This document shows, in pieces, positions 4,643 through 20,579 of a stretch of 20,579 bases of DNA. Below the pieces are notes generated by a model, which was not told the DNA's origin, did not search any database, and was given only the letters and a program-made list of their open reading frames with translations. Every line of letters starts with the position of its first letter. The stretch's first letter is position 1. Both the position numbers and the translations under genes were made by a program. The DNA is from a virus: positions 1-20,579 of IMG/VR virus record IMGVR_UViG_3300001798_000019. One strand, given 5' to 3'.

Positions 4643-6331
4643 TCATTGATTCGATGGAGGGAATCCGGAATTAGCTGGGCGGATTTCCTGAAGCTTCTTT
4701 TCCTTTCCGATTTCCTTTTCAGTCGCAGCAGCTTCCTCGTTTTCAATCAATAGATTCTCCAAAGTAGGATTATCAATGTTCAATAATACACGGGCTGTTT
4801 CTTTGGAAATGATTTTATTATTCACCATTGAAATAATAAAATTCTTTTCCTCTGGGGTTAATGGGCCAATGTCAATCTTGGAATCAAAAACGACTCGGAA
4901 ATCATCCAGACCATTTTTAGGATTTAATCCGATGAATTTCAAAATCGTTGTCAGAACCCACGAGCCTAATGAATCAATATCAGCTTTGAACTTCTTTATC
5001 CGGAGATAAAATCCTGCCATTGCCTGAATCCTCGAAACTGCCGATGCCATCGCATCTCCGGAGATGAGCTTATATTGCTGACCGGCTTCCTCAAGACAGG
5101 ATTCATAGGCTATTTGTTTCGCGAGAACGAAATTCTCCATTGGAACAGGGTCTTTAATTGTAACCTTCGGCTCGTGTCTTTCCTTTTTCCCTGATTCCAA
5201 ATCAATTTTTTCAATTCCTTTGAAATTCTGAATCATCGCTCCGCCACGTTCTAATCCTACGGGAACATCTTCCATCTTACCGGTTTTTTCATTGAGGATT
5301 TTTTCCGTTTTGAATTGAGTGTTCGTTGTAATGATTTCCTGAAATCCAGTTTCAAAAATTCCAATTGCTGCCAAAGTGAGAACAAGATTCAGGAAGGCGG
5401 ATAGCTCCATGAGCTGTTCCGAGACGAAAGGTTCTCCGGAGATTTCAAAAAATGTTGTCTCTGAATCCAGATTCAAGCCGGTTGAAATATCTTTCTTTTT
5501 CGTGTCTCGATTTTCGACTGGGGTTGAAGCAAGAGCCTCAATCGAGAATGTTTCCGTCTGTTTATCGGAAACAACTCCAATGATGGTTTTTCCGTTATCA
5601 TCGACAAAAGAGAATTCGATTATTTCCGCATCCTCGTTCGTATCATAATCCAATTTTTTCGTGTAGGAGACGATTGAAAGCTTGTCGCCCTCGTCATCCA
5701 TCATTCGCGACCGTTCCGGTTTAATGTGCTCGATTCTGATGGAATCCAGACACGTTCTAATATCATCGAGAGATAACTTATTGAGATTCTTTTTCTTTGA
5801 ATTAGGGATATAAACCCTCAGCCCTCCTCTGGAGGCGACGAGTCTCGAATTAAATGCTTTCTGGAGCTTCTGCTCAAGATTTTGTTTTTCCCAGAATTTC
5901 GAGAGGATTTTATCAATCTTGTCTTTCGTGTCCTTCAATTGGGAATCCTCCGGATTATCTGGAGGAGGGGTTTCCGGATTATCTGGATTATCCGGATTAT
6001 CCGGAGTATCTTTTATTTTCGGTTTATCGCTTTCATTCGATAATTTTTCTCCTCCCTTTTCAATATACCAATTCGGAGATTTGAGGAAGGAATCAGAGAT
6101 TGTGTTAATGATTTCACCAATGATATTTCGAGAAACGAATCTATCCTTGAACATTTTCTGAGAGTTCTGGGCAATGAGGGGCCCGAGGAATCCTTTTGAA
6201 CTTCGCCAGTAATCTCCTCGATAAGCTTTCAGAAAACTATCAAAAATTAATTTCTCATCTTTGGAAAGAGAGAGTTGCTGTTTCAAAGTATTAAATCCTA
6301 AGCTTTTCGATTTTATCAATGGATGCGTCAT
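4643..6331 (-). CDS. Portal protein
   Basis: A 562-residue protein fitting the SPP1 gp6-like portal class in length and layout. The N-terminal helical wing includes YRGDYWRSSKGFLG, then KMFKDRFVSRNIIGEIINTISDSFLKSPNWYI, a pattern common in portals ('v.N.i...v....s.l.g.p'). The stem region contains LRVYIPNSKKKNLNKL, and a long hydrophobic/helical crown segment holds ISGDAMASAVSRIQAMAGFYLRIKKFK and the C-terminal TPEEKNFIISMVNNKIISKETARVLLNIDNP, which is the usual portal tail. Portals form the dodecameric DNA gate at one capsid vertex. Residues 109-129 carry an unusual DNP repeat. The start at 6331 lacks a well-spaced Shine-Dalgarno (AAGGA lies 16 nt upstream). The gene follows the terminator at 6376-6416 and begins the virion module. 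Confidence 0.75.
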   Translation of the reverse strand: MTHPLIKSKSLGFNTLKQQLSLSKDEKLIFDSFLKAYRGDYWRSSKGFLGPLIAQNSQKMFKDRFVSRNIIGEIINTISDSFLKSPNWYIEKGGEKLSNESDKPKIKDTPDNPDNPDNPETPPPDNPEDSQLKDTKDKIDKILSKFWEKQNLEQKLQKAFNSRLVASRGGLRVYIPNSKKKNLNKLSLDDIRTCLDSIRIEHIKPERSRMMDDEGDKLSIVSYTKKLDYDTNEDAEIIEFSFVDDNGKTIIGVVSDKQTETFSIEALASTPVENRDTKKKDISTGLNLDSETTFFEISGEPFVSEQLMELSAFLNLVLTLAAIGIFETGFQEIITTNTQFKTEKILNEKTGKMEDVPVGLERGGAMIQNFKGIEKIDLESGKKERHEPKVTIKDPVPMENFVLAKQIAYESCLEEAGQQYKLISGDAMASAVSRIQAMAGFYLRIKKFKADIDSLGSWVLTTILKFIGLNPKNGLDDFRVVFDSKIDIGPLTPEEKNFIISMVNNKIISKETARVLLNIDNPTLENLLIENEEAAATEKEIGKEKKLQEIRPANSGFPPSNQ

Positions 6332-7963: not shown

Positions 7964-8634
7964 GTCTGGGAAACCTCGTGTGCTGGAGATTTAGTAAATG
8001 ATTTTGAGATTATGAGGAATTTTTCATCATTCATCAAATAAGATTTGTATTCCTTCATGCTCTCAATCGAGTCAGATGGATTTAATTCCTCTCCATGATT
8101 CCATATCTCTATTTCTAAGTAGGGACGACGAGGGACGAGATAAAAGCCACTAGCGCTATGAGGAGAAGCCTTAGTTCCGAACTCCGGAACCCTCGCAAAA
8201 ATAAAAATCTTCGGTTTATCCGGAATCATCGTCTGGTCAACAAAAAGTGCTTTGGGAGTTTTGATTTTGGAAAGATATTTTTCCGTCTTTTCGTCATCCA
8301 GAGAATTATAATTTTTTGTTGCGAGATAGGGGCATACTCTGAGGGAATAAGTCCCGCAGACTTTATGAACGGGAGAATCAATAAACACTCCAACCGGATT
8401 AAAAGCCGATTGTGGCCCCCCGATAAACCACATGTCCTCATAAAGTTCTAATCCGCAGATTGGGCACAATTGTTCATAGACACATTTTTTATATTTCTCA
8501 TCGTCATTGATTTTGAAATGGGCTTTTCCCTGATTATCAATCAGAACGATAAAGGGAACGGGAAAACCTCTCTCCGATTTGAGATGCTTCATTTGTTCCG
8601 GAATCTCTATTTTAACTTCTTTGATGTTTTTCAT
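7960..8634 (-). CDS. Conserved phage Cys-rich (zinc-binding) protein (224 aa)
   Basis: The N-terminus ERGFPVPFIVLIDNQGKAHFKIND is followed by a metal-binding pattern: C51, CPIC at 57-60, H90, C93 and C101 (CVYEQLCPICGLELYEDMWFIGGP and SPVHKVCGTYSLRVCPYL). I have a general memory of phage and actinobacterial proteins with the layout 'ERG.PVPwFV.....G.PdFRv....K...c....LCwvCG..LG' and 'P.H..Ca.ysa..CPfL', and this gene fits that pattern closely. Their function is not known to me. The C-terminal part (KPKIFIFARVPEFGT ... LVPRRPYLEIEIWNHGEELNPSD) also belongs to it. The gene has a tandemly duplicated ribosome-binding motif and ends in an ATGA overlap with the nuclease gene. Confidence 0.65.
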   Translation of the reverse strand: MKNIKEVKIEIPEQMKHLKSERGFPVPFIVLIDNQGKAHFKINDDEKYKKCVYEQLCPICGLELYEDMWFIGGPQSAFNPVGVFIDSPVHKVCGTYSLRVCPYLATKNYNSLDDEKTEKYLSKIKTPKALFVDQTMIPDKPKIFIFARVPEFGTKASPHSASGFYLVPRRPYLEIEIWNHGEELNPSDSIESMKEYKSYLMNDEKFLIISKSFTKSPAHEVSQT

Positions 8635-8660
8635 TCTTTTATCCTCTTTTATCCTCGATT
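8635..8660 (-). promoter_or_regulatory. Tandemly duplicated Shine-Dalgarno element
   Basis: The minus strand before ATG 8634 reads ATCGAGGATAAAAGAGGATAAAAGA. GAGGATAAAA appears twice in direct tandem. Single versions precede the genes starting at 9514, 10060, 10640, 17911 and 20123. The copy nearest the start codon gives normal spacing. The second copy could act as a standby site or reflect slippage. Confidence 0.55.
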
Positions 8661-8758
8661 TAATTAATGGACGGGGTAATTATATTTAGTCAGCCACCTA
8701 ACCCCGTTCTCACTGGTTGATTCCATTCTTGGCTCAAGCGGAGAATGACTCCGCAACC
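8661..8758 (-). other. Non-coding leader with two hairpins
   Basis: No open frame of note. On the minus strand the first hairpin is GCGGAG-TCATT-CTCCGC (8738-8754), directly after the 115-aa gene, without a U-run. The second is ACGGGG (8702-8707) with CCCCGT (8671-8676), enclosing TTAG/CTAA. The stems lie just upstream of the ribosome site of the Cys-rich protein gene and may regulate it or end the upstream message. Confidence 0.4.
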
Positions 8759-9222: not shown

Positions 9223-9514
9223 GGAAAAATGACACGAAAGTTCCGTCTTTCGGAGAGGTTTTCAGGACAGCGCCGGTTTCCTCATCCTGAAAATAATGGT
9301 CGACTCCCTTTCTCCGGATTAATTCGGAGATGACATTTTTCTGATTCTCATAGAAGGGCTTGACGATTTCTTTGTAAAGATATTCTAAATCAATTATGAT
9401 TGATTCAAGCTCCGTGTCCTTCATTTCTTTAAGTGTCTCCGGATTCATGACCTCGAACATCATATCATCCAGATTTTCAACATCATTACCTAATTCTTTT
9501 ATAGTTTCTTGCAT
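9188..9514 (-). CDS. Conserved phage hypothetical protein, apparently frameshifted at its 3' end
   Basis: The 108-residue frame has an acidic helical N-terminal half (residues 1-70, MQETIKELGNDVENLDDMMFEV ... ENQKNVISELIRRKG). The second half, VDHYFQDEETGAVLKTSPKDGTFVSFFPYQIQRTR, resembles a phage family I remember with the pattern 'VDHyFQDeeTG.VYkiv.p.GTFV.F....Y.RTkR' followed by 'GsLs..EA.e.GF'. That last part is found here in the +1 frame (9103-9222) rather than in this frame, which instead ends FSG. I infer one gene of about 137 codons with a frameshift near the perfect hairpin at 9190-9214. The start follows ATCGAGGATAAAAAGGAAG. The function of the family is unknown to me. Confidence 0.6.
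   Translation of the reverse strand: MQETIKELGNDVENLDDMMFEVMNPETLKEMKDTELESIIIDLEYLYKEIVKPFYENQKNVISELIRRKGVDHYFQDEETGAVLKTSPKDGTFVSFFPYQIQRTRFSG
9190..9214 (-). repeat. Perfect 11-bp hairpin with 3-nt loop inside coding sequence
   Basis: atccagagaac (9190-9200), cgt, gttctctggat (9204-9214): a 25-base perfect palindromic hairpin at the point where the reading frame appears to change. The short loop makes it very stable as RNA, and also prone to polymerase slippage or sequencing error. Confidence 0.85.
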
Positions 9515-9541
9515 TCTTTTTTCTTCCTTTTTATCCTCGAT

Positions 9542-10060
9542 TTAATAGATTGATTGAATGGGTAAATCCATGACAGATTTAGGGAAATTTTTTGAATCTT
9601 TAGGATGGGCTTCCTCGATTCTTTCGACGATATAATCTTTCTCGGCAGAAATTGGCTGTCGTAATTCCTGAATGAATTCAAGTAATGATTGATGATTATC
9701 AAACCAAGAATCGAACATCCTTCGCATCAAGCCAAAATCCTCGCCCTTTGCCCATAATCCCAGAATGATTTTTCCGGAGGAATAAGCCATTCCCACTTCA
9801 GCGGCGGCATCCTTTCCGGAGGGAGCAATATAAATTGTAATATCGGCAGCCATGGCTGATTTGGAATCGTATTGAAAAGAATCATAGGCATCTTGGGTTT
9901 TAACCCATTCCTCGAAGTCGAATCCCTTCTGCCCCTCCAGATGATTGTTCTCCACGAATGAGAAAATCTCGTGTCCTGATTTTCTCAAAAGAGAAGTTAA
10001 CATTTCGACAGCGTGCCTATGTTTCCATGAAGCAGCTATGTAAATACTATAATTTTTCAT
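9542..10060 (-). CDS. Nucleoside 2-deoxyribosyltransferase-like protein (172 aa)
   Basis: The N-terminus YSIYIAASWKHRHAVEMLTSLLRKSGHEIFSFVEN is the beta-strand/loop/helix opening of the deoxyribosyltransferase/SLOG superfamily ('yiAgsw..r......l...L...GheV'). The middle contains DSKSAMAADITIYIAPSGKDAAAEVGMAYSSGKIILGLWAKGEDFG, residues 66-110, with 'aD..i.i.P.G.da..E.G.A...Gk': E88 corresponds to the catalytic-type glutamate of this fold. Such enzymes exchange or cleave the base of nucleosides or nucleotides, and phages use relatives in nucleotide salvage or host interaction. Whether this one is an active transferase cannot be told from sequence alone. The ribosome site GAGGATAAAA precedes ATG 10060. 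The neighbouring 27-aa membrane peptide gene ends 28 nt upstream. Confidence 0.75.
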   Translation of the reverse strand: MKNYSIYIAASWKHRHAVEMLTSLLRKSGHEIFSFVENNHLEGQKGFDFEEWVKTQDAYDSFQYDSKSAMAADITIYIAPSGKDAAAEVGMAYSSGKIILGLWAKGEDFGLMRRMFDSWFDNHQSLLEFIQELRQPISAEKDYIVERIEEAHPKDSKNFPKSVMDLPIQSIY

Positions 10061-10175: not shown

Positions 10176-10640
10176 TTACTCCAACTCTTTTTTGTATTTC
10201 TCGACCAGTTCTTTCATCCTTTCCGGAGATACTAAATCCGGAGGTTTGATTTCAAACGGTCTTTGCTTATTGCCGATTGATTCATCCTCAGAAACTACCC
10301 GCATCTGAAACATGAATGGAAAATAATCTCCGGAATCAAAAACCCAGAGATGATATTGATTCGCCGTGTCGACTAATTTCGATTCCGGAGGATATATTTC
10401 AAGTGCACAAGTTTCTTTTCCACAAAGCATGTTCTTGATTTCCTGAAAATCCCTCCAATCATGAATCGCCTCTTTGTCACGACGTTTAATGGAAAGATGA
10501 ATCAAATCTCCATTTTCCATTTTCCCTGCAATCCTTAGATTGACCTGATATTTATCGTTCATCCAGACTTCTTCGTTCTTTGGAGGAGGGGCTAATTTTC
10601 CCTTCCGCTCGAACGTCGTTGCCTTTTCAAATTTTTTCAT
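10176..10640 (-). CDS. Conserved phage protein of the HLSIKR...DWR...ESR/KLVDTANQYHLW type (154 aa)
   Basis: The central part reads LIHLSIKRRDKEAIHDWRDFQEIKNMLCGKETCALEIYPPESKLVDTANQYHLWVFD. This is very close to a conserved phage domain I remember as 'HlSIKR.DR..irDWRdlQrIKNel.G.e.EAvELyPaESRLVDTaNqyHLw', possibly the Pfam family numbered DUF7694; the number should be checked. Function is unknown to me. The first 40 residues hold a Pro/Lys-rich segment (KGKLAPPPKNEEVW). The C-terminus (PPDLVSPERMKELVEKYKKELE) is a helix rich in Lys and Glu. The ATG at 10640 follows ATCGAGGATAAAC. The gene is the first protein gene after the structured RNA region. Confidence 0.7.
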   Translation of the reverse strand: MKKFEKATTFERKGKLAPPPKNEEVWMNDKYQVNLRIAGKMENGDLIHLSIKRRDKEAIHDWRDFQEIKNMLCGKETCALEIYPPESKLVDTANQYHLWVFDSGDYFPFMFQMRVVSEDESIGNKQRPFEIKPPDLVSPERMKELVEKYKKELE

Positions 10641-10668
10641 CGTTTATCCTCGATTTAATTTATTTTTT

Positions 10669-10708
10669 GGATGGTTTTCTTTTATTTTTCATCGTCCTAA
10701 AACCATCC
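10669..10708 (-). repeat. Inverted repeat before the 154-aa gene
   Basis: ggatggtttt (10669-10678) and aaaaccatcc (10699-10708) form a perfect 10-bp stem with a 20-nt loop. Seven further AT pairs can extend it across a small bulge. The sequence following the stem on the minus strand is A-rich, so it is not a terminator. The loop and arm hold a tiny frame (AGGACGATG, then a 10-codon basic peptide MKNKRKPSKK). It lies 29 nt upstream of ATG 10640, where it could govern translation. Confidence 0.55.
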
Positions 10709-10724
10709 GAAAATAACGATTAAA

Positions 10725-10853
10725 TCAGGGAGACAAGATTTTGAAAAGTCGGGTAAGACTTCCGCTCTATCCATCTGAGCTACTTTGGATTTCTCCGCAG
10801 GCTGGATTTGAACCAGCGTCCTAAAGTTGTAGACCTTTCCGCATTCTCCCTGA
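10725..10853 (-). ncRNA. tRNA-like RNA with permuted halves (T arm before D arm)
   Basis: In transcript order: TCAGGGAGA (10853-10845); GAAAGGTC (10839-10832); anticodon-stem 3' strand ACTTT (10827-10823); variable AGGAC; T arm GCTGG-TTCAAAT-CCAGC (10817-10801); 3' acceptor strand CTGCGGA (10800-10794); GAAA (10793-10790); 5' acceptor strand TCCAAAG (10789-10783); TA (8,9); D arm GCTC-AGATGGATA-GAGC (10780-10764); 5' anticodon stem GAAGT (10762-10758); GACTTTTC (10750-10743); TCTCCCTGA (10733-10725). The T loop has TTC and A58, and the D loop has GG. The anticodon stem pairs GAAGT/ACTTT. Two outer helices (8 bp with one G-U, 9 bp perfect) close the open anticodon end. The acceptor stem has two adjacent mismatches (5 of 7 pairs). 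No anticodon loop is encoded contiguously. It may be a permuted tRNA gene or a tRNA mimic. Confidence 0.6.
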
Positions 10854-10858
10854 ATATC

Positions 10859-10981
10859 AATATTTTTTCATCTGGATTGATGAATCAGGAAAGAAAGAAT
10901 CGCCGAGGATAAAGAATGAAATACGAGGCCTATTCTCTCCTCCCTCTAGCTAGGACTCATCAACCCAGATGAAAAAATATT
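10859..10981 (-). repeat. 25-bp near-perfect inverted repeat with a 73-nt loop
   Basis: The arms are 10859-10883 and 10957-10981: aatattttttcatctgg, then a one-base difference (A versus G, a G-U pair in RNA), then ttgatga. As RNA the arms form an uninterrupted 25-bp helix long enough to be an RNase III-type substrate. The arm nearest the tRNA-like RNA ends 5 nt before it. Arms this long and this well matched are not expected by chance. The 73-nt loop (10884-10956) is purine-rich on one strand and holds a translation-start-like element on the plus strand. No target-site duplication is evident at the ends, so a miniature transposable element is not supported. The feature is most likely part of the same RNA module. 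Confidence 0.85.
10916..10972 (+). other. Tiny plus-strand frame (18 codons) with ribosome-site-like motif, doubtful
   Basis: On the plus strand, opposite to all genes, GAGGATAAAGAATGAAA lies in the hairpin loop. It matches the start motif GAGGATAAAAGAATG found before several minus-strand genes. The frame encodes MKYEAYSLLPLARTHQPR and ends inside the right arm. It may be a leader peptide, part of a segment that inverts, or coincidence. Confidence 0.2.
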
Positions 10982-11084: not shown

Positions 11085-12851
11085 TTACGTTACATAGGAA
11101 AAACTTCCTGAAGCATCCTCATCCGGAGGAATATCTTTCAGGATTGAAGCCATATAAGTCGCCATTGATAAACCTACGGCGGCATCAATCTTTTTCGCTT
11201 CTGTTGCAGTTCCCTTGATTAATCGAATCATCTCGTTTTCATATTCTTTCGCCTTTGCGGAGAGCATGTGTTCCTCAAGTTCCGGATGAGGATATAAATC
11301 CAATCTTTTTTCGTTGATGATTTTCCAGAGATGAGTATCAGCCAATAATCTCATGTTTCCCTGATTGAATTCTTTACAAGGGATTCCCATTTCTCGGAGC
11401 TTCATCGCGATGGAATGGAGCTGAAACGGGTCATAATAAACGGAACCGAGGATTAATCCCATATTCCAGAGATTGACGATTTTCGGAATAATGATTTTCT
11501 CCAAATCAGCATCGTGCTTATGGGCTCCGAGAGCAATCAGTTCCGGAGAATTTTTATTTCTTTTCGGAGAATAGATTTCGCAATATCTTAATCGGAATCT
11601 ATCCATCTTTTTGCCGAATAACTCGACTTCTTTCTTCGATGCTCCGACAATTGAAATCGTGTCATTCCTCATAGAAGCATCAATTGCGATGACCATCGGT
11701 GAAAGGTCTCCTCTCTCGTCAAGGGTTTTACAGGCATCCAATTCCTCCGGAGAAATAAAAGTTCCCTCAGAACTCTGCCAATCATTCTGCCACAGGCGGA
11801 CGAATGTCGAGTGTCGAGTGTTGGATTTCTGAACCGCGATTTCTTCATCGTCAATCCATGTTGCTCGGATTTCGTGGTCCCAAAAAATAAAGAATTTTTC
11901 TTTCGGAATATGGTAGCAACAGGGAATCCCGCGAGATTGAATGTCCTCCAGACCTGGCACGGGCTCAATCTCATTTCCGAATTTCGAGAGAGATTTAACG
12001 ACTGCATCCTTTGAAGTATCTTCAAAAACTCTTAAATATTCATCTTTTAATAATTTGGATTCATCCTCGAATCCTGCGTAACTCTCAATCCATCGAATCG
12101 AGTTGAATCGTGTCGGGACGGGCGGAAGTTCCTCGAATAATCTGAAATCTGATTCAAGACGATATGTCCAAAGTTCTGACCAGAGGGTTAAACCATAATC
12201 TCCTCCTGCCTGTCCAGCATAGTTATTCGGGATTGCCTGAAAGGTGCTTCCATTAGGGAGGATAATTTCCGGCTTTGAAGTCGTATGAAAGGGAACTTTG
12301 CCGCCTTTGGCAAATAGACTGGGTCGAGCAGATTTGAAGATTAAACCGGCGCTCTGTTCCTGATTCGACGCAAGGGTTAAAATCAGATTAGGCGCCTCTA
12401 TAATGCAACTCCACCACCCTCCAACACACGCCGCGATTTGGGTTTTCCCGTGTTTCTTCGGTTGAGACCAGATTATTGTCTGATAGGGAAATTTACCATT
12501 ATCCTTTGGAGTGAGAACATGATTCAGGATTCTTTTTTGATAATCTTGAAGCTCCAATAATTTCGCATGAGTATAATCGAACTGCCCTTTATATTCCTTG
12601 ACAGTTTTCCAATTATACATGTTCTTTTCAATCCATTCGACAATGGGCACGAATTTGGAATTCTCAGCAATAAATTTCTCCATCTTTTCTTTTGCTTCTT
12701 TCGCTAATCCCTTTAATTCGGGTTCACCTGTCTGAAACATTTTCGGGATGGATTTTTGTTTTTGTTTTTCCTGATATTCACGGAATAATTCTTCATCGGT
12801 CTTTTGAAACCGAAGCATCGAGGGAAGTTTAATCGAGGATAATATACTCAT
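11085..12851 (-). CDS. terL: Terminase large subunit
   Basis: A 588-residue motor-nuclease that pumps phage DNA into the prohead and cuts it. The Walker A-like loop is WSQPKKHGKT (128-137), with the lysine/histidine-rich variant common in phage terminases. The Walker B candidate is LTLWSELW (221-228, E226). The C-terminal nuclease acidic residues are at MVIAIDAS (D391), VYYDPFQ (D474) and KKIDAAVGLSMA (D556), the standard three-aspartate pattern. Length is normal for the family. The start overlaps the 68-aa gene stop (ATGA). It is separated from the portal by about 4.7 kb of metabolic genes rather than being adjacent, which is less usual. The stop is followed by the structured non-coding region. 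Confidence 0.92.
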   Translation of the reverse strand: MSILSSIKLPSMLRFQKTDEELFREYQEKQKQKSIPKMFQTGEPELKGLAKEAKEKMEKFIAENSKFVPIVEWIEKNMYNWKTVKEYKGQFDYTHAKLLELQDYQKRILNHVLTPKDNGKFPYQTIIWSQPKKHGKTQIAACVGGWWSCIIEAPNLILTLASNQEQSAGLIFKSARPSLFAKGGKVPFHTTSKPEIILPNGSTFQAIPNNYAGQAGGDYGLTLWSELWTYRLESDFRLFEELPPVPTRFNSIRWIESYAGFEDESKLLKDEYLRVFEDTSKDAVVKSLSKFGNEIEPVPGLEDIQSRGIPCCYHIPKEKFFIFWDHEIRATWIDDEEIAVQKSNTRHSTFVRLWQNDWQSSEGTFISPEELDACKTLDERGDLSPMVIAIDASMRNDTISIVGASKKEVELFGKKMDRFRLRYCEIYSPKRNKNSPELIALGAHKHDADLEKIIIPKIVNLWNMGLILGSVYYDPFQLHSIAMKLREMGIPCKEFNQGNMRLLADTHLWKIINEKRLDLYPHPELEEHMLSAKAKEYENEMIRLIKGTATEAKKIDAAVGLSMATYMASILKDIPPDEDASGSFSYVT

Positions 12852-15498: not shown

Positions 15499-15522
15499 AA
15501 TCGAGCCTAATCGTCTTTTATC
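15499..15522 (-). repeat. 24-nt direct repeat, copy B
   Basis: An exact 24-base match to 1622-1645. It lies between the stop of the 115-aa gene (15551) and the start of the 53-aa gene (15484). Flanking bases further upstream also resemble copy A (AAGGA and ATCATGA). The match length is far beyond chance for this window. Confidence 0.6.
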
Positions 15523-15550
15523 TTCAAGTCCTTATCATTTATCATGATGT

Positions 15551-19688: not shown

Positions 19689-20123
19689 TTAATGCATCAA
19701 ATCATAAGCCGGATTTTTGTAAAGAATCACTCCGGAATAATTATAAGAGGGAGAAACCGAATTCCGAATCGTGTCCAGTCTCCAGATTTCCGAATGAAAG
19801 AATTCGCCCTTTTCCGGAATTCTCTGATTGCACCCGAATGTTCCGCCCTCACAAACTTTTCTTTCCGCCAAAGCCCTGATGACTTTCAAGTGGTCTCCGT
19901 TCGATGAAGAAAGCCGGTCGTGTTTCCGATAATCGAAAAGCCATTTTCCTCCCTCCGATAAATGAACATTTGAGATAACAAAGATTCGATGAAAATTGAT
20001 GACCGGTAAAGGTTTCTCAGCTTTGAGATTCTTTTCATAAGACCATCTTTCAAATTTGTAAATAACGTCGCCCGGTTTCAAATCCGAGACTTTTTCAATC
20101 CGTGTTTTCTGAATTTTTTCCAT
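19689..20123 (-). CDS. Hypothetical protein (144 aa)
   Basis: A 144-residue soluble protein with a plausible beta-rich fold: TRIEKVSDLKPGDVIYKFERWSYEKNL, then VINFHRIFVISNVHLSEGGKWLFDYRKHDR, with a pair of cysteines in CEGGTFGC (about 110-117). The phrase VSDLKPGDVIYKF resembles small regulatory or SH3-like domains but gives no family assignment. A strong ribosome site ATCGAGGATAAAAGAAA precedes ATG 20123. It lies between the three-hairpin intergenic segment and the 89-aa gene. Confidence 0.55.
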   Translation of the reverse strand: MEKIQKTRIEKVSDLKPGDVIYKFERWSYEKNLKAEKPLPVINFHRIFVISNVHLSEGGKWLFDYRKHDRLSSSNGDHLKVIRALAERKVCEGGTFGCNQRIPEKGEFFHSEIWRLDTIRNSVSPSYNYSGVILYKNPAYDLMH

Positions 20124-20146
20124 TTTCTTTTATCCTCGATTTTTTA

Positions 20147-20197
20147 ATCTGACCTCATCAGATGGAGATTAACTCCATGACTCCCAGAGGAGGGAGT
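20147..20197 (-). promoter_or_regulatory. Three tandem small hairpins
   Basis: In transcript order: ACTCCC-TCCTCT-GGGAGT (20197-20180), ATGGAG-TTAAT-CTCCAT (20178-20162) and ATCTGA-TGAGG-TCAGAT (20163-20147). Each is a perfect 6-bp stem with a 5- or 6-nt loop. The last two share two bases, so the third would be shortened if both form at once. None is followed by a U-run. They lie just upstream of the ribosome site of the 144-aa gene. Confidence 0.5.
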
Positions 20198-20207
20198 TTC
20201 GGTCTAT

Positions 20208-20492
20208 TTAATGGATTTGATTCTTAGAATTAAGGGTCTTGATTCTCTTAGAATACCAAGAAAGGATTTCATTCAATCGAGAGGAAGAATTCGACCAAGT
20301 GACTTTTCCTTCGTCATCTTTAACACTGATGTAATAATAGAAAACCTTTCCTCCATAACCATTGACTCCCTGATTCGTCGCCTGTATCGTTGTCGAATTA
20401 ATTACCCGAGTTCGTCGGAAACCTTCTTTAACTTCATTCCTCATGATTTCGATTTCATTTTTCACCACTTTGACACTTTCCGGATTTAACAT
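20208..20492 (-). CDS. Hypothetical protein (94 aa)
   Basis: A 94-residue protein, MLNPESVKVVKNEIEIMRNEVKEGFRRTRVINSTTIQATN followed by QGVNGYGGKVFYYYISVKDDEGKVTWSNSSSRLNEIL and a helical C-terminus. It looks like an N-terminal amphipathic helix and a beta-rich core (FYYYISVKDDEGKVTW). The start at 20492 has AAGGATAAAGAAA, a version of the recurrent initiation motif. The 87 nt upstream to the window edge hold no recognisable gene, and a TTGACA box (20564-20569) lacks a convincing -10. No function assigned. Confidence 0.5.
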   Translation of the reverse strand: MLNPESVKVVKNEIEIMRNEVKEGFRRTRVINSTTIQATNQGVNGYGGKVFYYYISVKDDEGKVTWSNSSSRLNEILSWYSKRIKTLNSKNQIH

Positions 20493-20579
20493 TTTCTTTA
20501 TCCTTGATTTTTAATTTTGGGATTCTCTCCCTTGAAAGACATCCTCTCATATTAGAAATAGCTTGTCAAGAATAAAATG

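What the first reader, a model, noticed from the sequence alone, without database searches (positions are those of the whole stretch)
10725..10853. tRNA-like RNA with its two halves in reversed order and the acceptor stem capped by GAAA
On the minus strand the T arm and the 3' acceptor strand come before the 5' acceptor strand and D arm. The acceptor strands are joined by GAAA, as in a circularly permuted tRNA. The T loop, D loop (GG), U8-A9 and a 5-bp anticodon stem are all visible. Two extra helices (8 bp, 9 bp) tie the open anticodon end together. To my knowledge permuted tRNA genes are known mainly from red and green algae and from some archaea, so a phage example with SD-type neighbours would be unusual. 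The acceptor stem has two adjacent mismatches, and there is no contiguous anticodon loop, so it may instead be a tRNA mimic, for example a decoy for tRNA-binding enzymes or an RNase P/RNase Z-processed element.
Basis: partly seen in the sequence, partly recalled or inferred. Interest (0 to 1): 0.9.

Follow-up and report, generated by a model that had tools for sequence, protein, structure and literature searches.

The report
Phage-encoded bacterial Y RNA (YrlA)
The reversed-order tRNA-like RNA is real, but it belongs to a known class: it is a bacterial-type Y RNA (YrlA), a natural tRNA mimic that partners the Ro60 protein, carried here by a phage that shows no Ro60 gene of its own.

Summary
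On the minus strand, 10853-10725, the RNA has a 9-bp end helix, an 8-bp helix, and a T arm / capped acceptor / D arm in circularly permuted order, plus a 5-bp anticodon-type stem. Rfam names it YrlA, the bacterial Y RNA (50.1 bits, E 9e-9, under the gathering cut-off of 69). I built a covariance model from 18 bacterial YrlAs, without the window. It scores the window at 79.2 bits (E 6e-19), inside the range of held-out true YrlAs; junctions of tandem tRNAs reach at most 47.8. Both flanks of the Ro60-site internal loop (GAAUGC / CUUGUC) are intact. Most phages with this RNA type also encode Ro60: 10 of 13 contigs found with the GAAUGC pattern. The window's 63-kb parent contig does not, by three profile searches. 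Best reading: a phage Y RNA that docks on a Ro60, probably the host's, and displays a tRNA mimic to PNPase or other tRNA-binding proteins. It is not a permuted tRNA gene, a tRNA remnant or a new RNA class. The remaining interest is that it looks Ro60-less and that default Rfam thresholds miss it.

The parts
10725..10853 (-). YrlA-type Y RNA, whole element
   Evidence: Rfam RF02553 50.1 bits; own CM R1 79.2 bits
10845..10853 (-). 5' strand of the end (Ro60-binding) helix, UCAGGGAGA
   Evidence: pairs with 10725-10733; 8 of 9 pairs show two-sided changes across relatives
10725..10733 (-). 3' strand of the end helix, UCUCCCUGA
10841..10846 (-). conserved 5' side of the Ro60-site internal loop, GAAUGC
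   Evidence: AAU and C invariant, flanking Gs at least 90% in 21 aligned YrlAs
10732..10737 (-). conserved 3' side of the Ro60-site internal loop, CUUGUC
   Evidence: CUUGUC or close variants in bacterial and phage relatives
10832..10839 (-). 5' strand of the 8-bp linking helix, GAAAGGUC
   Evidence: 5 of 8 pairs differ on both sides from the bacterial consensus GGUGGAAC/GUUUCACC
10743..10750 (-). 3' strand of the 8-bp linking helix, GACUUUUC
10823..10827 (-). 3' strand of the anticodon-type stem, ACUUU
   Evidence: pairs with 10758-10762; stem supported over 35 YrlAs
10801..10817 (-). T arm, GCUGG UUCAAAU CCAGC
   Evidence: 100% of cells paired in A1
10794..10800 (-). 3' acceptor strand, CUGCGGA
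   Evidence: all 7 acceptor pairs show two-sided change in relatives
10790..10793 (-). GAAA loop closing the acceptor stem
   Evidence: direct reading; loop sequence and length vary in relatives
10783..10789 (-). 5' acceptor strand, UCCAAAG
10764..10780 (-). D arm, GCUC AGAUGGAUA GAGC, preceded by U8-A9 (10781-10782)
   Evidence: 100% of cells paired in A1
10758..10762 (-). 5' strand of the anticodon-type stem, GAAGU

Best explanation
This is a phage-encoded bacterial-type Y RNA (YrlA), read from the minus strand of a 444-bp gap between the large terminase gene and a DUF7694 gene. Shown by comparison: the ends pair to form the conserved Ro60-binding stem, with the internal loop GAAUGC/CUUGUC intact. 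An 8-bp helix links this stem to a tRNA-like domain whose T arm, loop-capped acceptor and D arm follow in circularly permuted order, so it folds like a tRNA core but has no free acceptor end and no anticodon loop. Inferred from studied Y RNAs: the stem docks on a Ro60 (Rsr) ring, and the tRNA-like domain recruits PNPase or other tRNA-binding enzymes, redirecting or gating decay of structured RNA and tRNA fragments in the infected cell. Since no Ro60 gene is found in the 63-kb contig, the partner is most likely the host's Ro60.
For: Identity: Rfam YrlA 50.1 bits, E 9.4e-9, full length. Own CM from 18 bacterial YrlAs without the window: 79.2 bits, E 5.8e-19, top of 95 look-alike loci; held-out YrlAs in the same loci score about 59-99; tandem-tRNA junctions at most 47.8 and at most 37.4 with Rfam's model. 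Covariation: bacterial set plus window, 27 of 33 pairs changed on both sides, 0/500 shuffles, slid controls collapse; phage-only set, 24 of 30 pairs, 98% of cells paired. Anticodon-type stem, 126 of 175 pairs against a shuffle maximum of 93. Ro60 motif conserved. Ro60 beside such RNAs in bacteria and in most phages of this type. The known Y RNA-Ro60-PNPase model is summarised in PMC8394870.
Against: No Ro60 in the parent contig, so the partner is inferred, and the host is unknown. No sigma-70 promoter-like site was found upstream and there is no expression evidence. The acceptor stem has two mismatches, and the Rfam score lies below the family gathering score. The PNPase role is established for the Deinococcus RNA only.
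Confidence: 0.75

Rival explanations
1. The Y RNA works without Ro60, as a decoy: its tRNA-like domain competes for a tRNA-targeting host enzyme, such as an anticodon nuclease used against phages, and cannot be cut because it has no anticodon loop.
For: No Ro60 in the contig. The complete tRNA core is kept, anticodon-type stem included, but the anticodon loop is open. For Salmonella, YrlA was not cut by the SOS-induced anticodon nuclease and was proposed as a possible competitive inhibitor (PMC7790460).
Against: The Ro60-binding stem and its internal loop are fully conserved in the window, which a pure tRNA decoy would not need. Most phages with this RNA type carry Ro60.
Confidence: 0.2
2. The phage does encode its own Ro60, but it lies beyond the ends of the 63,299-bp contig or is too diverged to be found; the RNA is then half of an ordinary phage Ro60/Y RNA pair.
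For: The contig is linear without end repeats. Ro60 can lie several kb away in other phages: about 12, 17 and 22 kb in G345, G352 and G349. A diverged phage Ro60 (phrog_850) escaped TROVE and my profile in G003 and G018.
Against: phrog_850 finds all Ro60 types tested and still finds none in G001. The contig already holds replication, packaging, capsid and tail genes.
Confidence: 0.25
3. A remnant of two tandem tRNA genes (the 3' half of one and the 5' half of the next) with chance pairing.
For: Real tandem-tRNA junctions give the same T arm-acceptor-acceptor-D arm order and score on the YrlA models.
Against: Acceptor strands pair with each other and covary. Ro60 motif and both outer helices are present. 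No tRNA in the window or the 63-kb contig. Score far above all tandem-tRNA controls.
Confidence: 0.01
4. A circularly permuted tRNA gene matured into a working tRNA, as in red and green algae.
For: The order of the halves is the same.
Against: There is no anticodon loop: the anticodon-type stem opens onto an 8-bp helix and the Ro60 stem, which covary as continuous helices. The acceptor is closed by a loop in the relatives too.
Confidence: 0.01

Closest known systems
YrlA, bacterial Y RNA (Rfam RF02553; Chen et al. 2014 RNA; crystal structure 6CU1, Wang et al. 2018, both cited through PMC8394870 and PMC11472068)
   Same: Same order and geometry: Ro60-type stem with GAAUGC/CUUGUC, 8-bp helix, then T arm, loop-capped acceptor and D arm; conserved UACA after the 8-bp helix.
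   Different: Diverged sequence, 50.1 bits against a gathering score of 69; two acceptor mismatches; single copy; not next to rsr or rtcBA.
Y RNAs of Ro60-encoding phages (reported for mycobacteriophages per PMC12282133; here L237, L189, L169, L241, L227, L218, L211, L208)
   Same: Same RNA type, R1 scores 70-108 bits, same helices.
   Different: Those contigs carry a Ro60 (phrog_850), often within about 1-20 kb; none is found in the window's contig.
Deinococcus Y RNA / RYPER (Rsr-Y RNA-PNPase)
   Same: Shares the predicted logic: stem for Ro60, effector domain for PNPase.
   Different: Not tested here; no Ro60 known for this phage and no binding data.
Circularly permuted tRNA genes of algae and archaea
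   Same: T half before D half, acceptor strands joined by a loop.
   Different: No anticodon loop, no tRNA product expected; conserved Ro60 stem instead.

Membership tests
YrlA / bacterial Y RNA | Circularly permuted tRNA-like domain (T arm, closed acceptor, D arm) | tested here: met
   acceptor, T and D helices covary
YrlA / bacterial Y RNA | Stem from paired 5' and 3' ends bearing the conserved Ro60-site internal loop | tested here: met
   9-bp helix, GAAUGC and CUUGUC; helix covaries
YrlA / bacterial Y RNA | Significant match to the family covariance model | tested here: met
   RF02553 E 9.4e-9, though 50.1 bits is below the curated 69; R1 79.2 bits, E 5.8e-19
YrlA / bacterial Y RNA | Encoded near a Ro60 (rsr) gene | tested here: not met
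   No Ro60 in the 63.3-kb contig by TROVE, own profiles or phrog_850. This is a usual association used for discovery, not part of the RNA's definition; the contig may be incomplete.
YrlA / bacterial Y RNA | Binds Ro60; substrate of tRNA-modifying enzymes; tethers PNPase | not testable with these tools
   needs biochemistry
Permuted tRNA gene | Halves reversed but together encoding a complete anticodon loop and a maturable tRNA | tested here: not met
   no anticodon loop; ARAGORN finds nothing, with or without introns allowed
Tandem tRNA remnant | tRNA genes adjacent, acceptor strands pairing with their own partners | tested here: not met
   no tRNA in the window or contig; acceptor strands pair with each other

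The most novel reading that the evidence does not exclude
An orphan viral Y RNA: the phage carries only the RNA half of the Ro60/Y RNA system and uses it to take over, or block, the host's Ro60-PNPase or tRNA-repair machinery during infection.
Probability: 0.35. Interest if true: 0.55.

Novelty: new member of a known kind. Interest (0 to 1): 0.33.

Why it matters
It settles a striking structure as a known RNA class and shows that phage Y RNAs are both common and missed: none of the 20 phage records searched with Rfam's YrlA model, nor the window, reached Rfam's cut-off, yet a model of 18 bacterial sequences separates the window and many phage Y RNAs from tandem tRNAs. A phage that keeps the Ro60-binding stem but seems to lack Ro60 makes a testable case for a virus using the host's Ro60 ribonucleoprotein, whose role in infection is open.

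Tried and rejected
BLAST of the region against known phages gave only weak or tRNA-junction hits. TerL and the DnaB-type helicase had no relative in IMG/VR other than the parent contig, and TerL had none in INPHARED, so there are no close relatives to compare and no host assignment. Rfam YrlA on its own is not proof: at E 1e-3 it also fires on tandem tRNA junctions in 35 of 40 control records and in 7 of 14 named genomes, so I built a stricter model. TROVE (PF05731) alone under-detects Ro60: it missed phrog_850-type proteins in G003 and G018 and scored true gammaproteobacterial Rsr weakly, so my first count of Ro60-less phages was too high and was corrected. ORFs chosen for L122 and L124 were on the wrong strand and are not counted as Ro60 controls. 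Sigma-70 promoter scan: nothing. A search for the long hairpin arms elsewhere found only this contig. Chen 2014, Sim & Wolin 2018 and Wang 2018 are not held in the paper library, so their content is taken from papers that cite them.

Full report
WHAT WAS CHECKED. The ends pair over 9 bp (UCAGGGAGA/UCUCCCUGA). An 8-bp helix follows (GAAAGGUC/GACUUUUC), then the T arm, the 3' acceptor strand, GAAA, the 5' acceptor strand, U8-A9 and the D arm with GG. A 5-bp stem GAAGU/ACUUU sits where the anticodon stem belongs, one base after the D stem and five bases before the T stem. The acceptor has two adjacent mismatches, as stated. ARAGORN finds no tRNA here or anywhere in the window. No ORF of 50 aa or more covers the element; it lies in a 444-bp gap between the large terminase gene (11085-12851) and a DUF7694 gene (10176-10640), both on the same strand.

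WHAT IT IS. Searched against all of Rfam 15, the window's one significant match is RF02553, YrlA ('Y RNA-like'), over the full model at exactly this place: 50.1 bits, E 9.4e-9. That lies below the curated gathering score of 69, so default annotation would miss it. The match cannot be taken at face value, because tandem tRNA junctions also score on this model: up to 37.4 bits in 40 control phage records.

I therefore gathered true bacterial YrlAs by pattern and by genome search: Pragia, Limnobaculum, Pseudomonas, Albitalea, a planctomycete and further Gammaproteobacteria. They share GAAUGC near the 5' end, CUUGUC near the 3' end and (C)UACA after the 8-bp helix, and so does the window. A covariance model built from 18 of them, without the window, gives the window 79.2 bits, E 5.8e-19, the top of 95 viral loci that had been selected for looking alike. 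The next are phage Y RNAs at 63.7 and 59.6, and tandem-tRNA junctions reach 47.8. YrlAs in the bacterial loci that were left out of the model score about 59 to 99.

COVARIATION. In an alignment of 20 bacterial YrlAs plus the window, 27 of 33 pairs change on both sides, 91% of cells are paired, no shuffle reaches these values, and sliding the partners by one column collapses them. Relative to the bacterial consensus GGUGGAAC/GUUUCACC, the window's 8-bp helix has changed on both sides at five of eight pairs and still pairs throughout. A second search of viral contigs gave 13 contigs with matches at E 1e-10 or better, up to 108 bits. The 18 best phage RNAs, window included, give 24 of 30 pairs with two-sided change and 98% of cells paired; this alignment was fitted to the model and so leans towards it. 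The anticodon-type stem, which was not in my model, pairs in 126 of 175 cells over 35 sequences against a shuffle maximum of 93.

RO60. In bacteria with this RNA type, Ro60 (Rsr) is encoded close by. In phages, of 20 records that hold the reversed module without adjacent tRNA, 8 have TROVE, against 1 of 40 tandem-tRNA controls (Fisher p = 3.5e-4; several of the 20 are near-identical). The broader Ro60 model phrog_850 adds two more and finds Ro60 in 10 of the 13 contigs of the second search.

The window lies, 100% identical, inside a 63,299-bp contig, IMGVR_UViG_3300025536_000016. It carries a DNA polymerase, DnaB-type helicase, clamp, ThyX, TerL, and head genes, with tail-type ORFs, but no Ro60 by TROVE, by a profile that recovers left-out Ro60s at E 1e-48 or better, by the same kind of profile on the whole record, or by phrog_850. 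The contig is linear, so a Ro60 beyond its ends cannot be excluded.

HOW IT LIKELY WORKS. Shown here: the architecture, and conservation of the Ro60-site loop and of the tRNA core. From the literature: YrlA's stem tethers Rsr and its tRNA-like domain binds PNPase and is modified by tRNA enzymes (PMC8394870). The YrlA crystal structure is a circular permutation of tRNA (PMC11472068). For Salmonella, YrlA was not cleaved by an anticodon nuclease, and a competitive-inhibitor role was suggested (PMC7790460). Y RNAs have been noted in mycobacteriophages, and a Listeria phage was proposed to have them (PMC12282133). Inferred: since the Ro60 stem is intact and no phage Ro60 is seen, the RNA most likely joins the host's Ro60 and brings PNPase or another tRNA-binding protein to chosen RNAs. 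The main rivals are a Ro60-independent decoy of tRNA-targeting enzymes, and an ordinary pair whose Ro60 gene lies off the contig.

VERDICT. It is a new, diverged member of a known kind, of moderate interest because it appears to lack its usual protein partner in the same genome and because phage Y RNAs fall below standard detection thresholds.

Noticed in passing
10859-10981: A 28-bp, 93% inverted repeat with a second inner helix lies directly upstream of the Y RNA. It folds as one long hairpin (-61.9 kcal/mol, z -9.0). It is the only spaced inverted repeat with a perfect arm of 14 bp or more in the 63-kb contig, matches no Rfam family and was found in no other viral contig. Role unknown.
   Followed up: partly
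10664-10713: A 15-bp inverted repeat (GGATGGTTTT...AAAACCATCC) between the Y RNA and the ribosome-binding site of the DUF7694 gene; possible leader hairpin or processing site, no T-run of a terminator.
   Followed up: no
L086 181-325 (310-kb contig IMGVR_UViG_3300011559_000001); L073 about 4660-4815 and 4820-4970 (278-kb contig IMGVR_UViG_3300045450_000109): The reversed tRNA-like module seems to sit inside the anticodon loop of an ordinary tRNA, so that a tRNA cloverleaf replaces the Ro60 stem. With introns allowed, ARAGORN calls a tRNA-Ile(tat) with a 70-nt insert at position 38, and a neighbouring tRNA-Gly with a 59-nt insert, in L086; for L073 the outer pairs are by eye. Neither contig has a detectable Ro60. 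A possible link between tandem tRNAs and Y RNAs.
   Followed up: partly
L016, L068, L090, L098, L099, L114 (contigs up to 176 kb): A family of viral contigs with a 7-bp-acceptor reversed module and no Ro60 by three profile searches; more candidates for orphan phage Y RNAs.
   Followed up: partly
L030 7053-7101 and L029 about 729-783: Reversed modules beside a diverged Ro60-like protein (phrog_850; the L030 protein matches Pfam DUF2828/DUF7788) that the TROVE model misses; L029 also carries a Thg1-type tRNA-His guanylyltransferase.
   Followed up: partly
L005:17704-19269, L006:1642-2913 (parent contig): An AAA ATPase and a DUF3150-like protein near the contig end; the contig stops shortly after it, so any further genes beyond it are unseen.
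   Followed up: no
20121-20205, 20490-20579, 8617-8664, 9494-9546, 1622-1661, 15499-15538: Short intergenic stretches, 77-97% alike, recur around the parent contig; probably shared leader and ribosome-binding or regulatory repeats.
   Followed up: no
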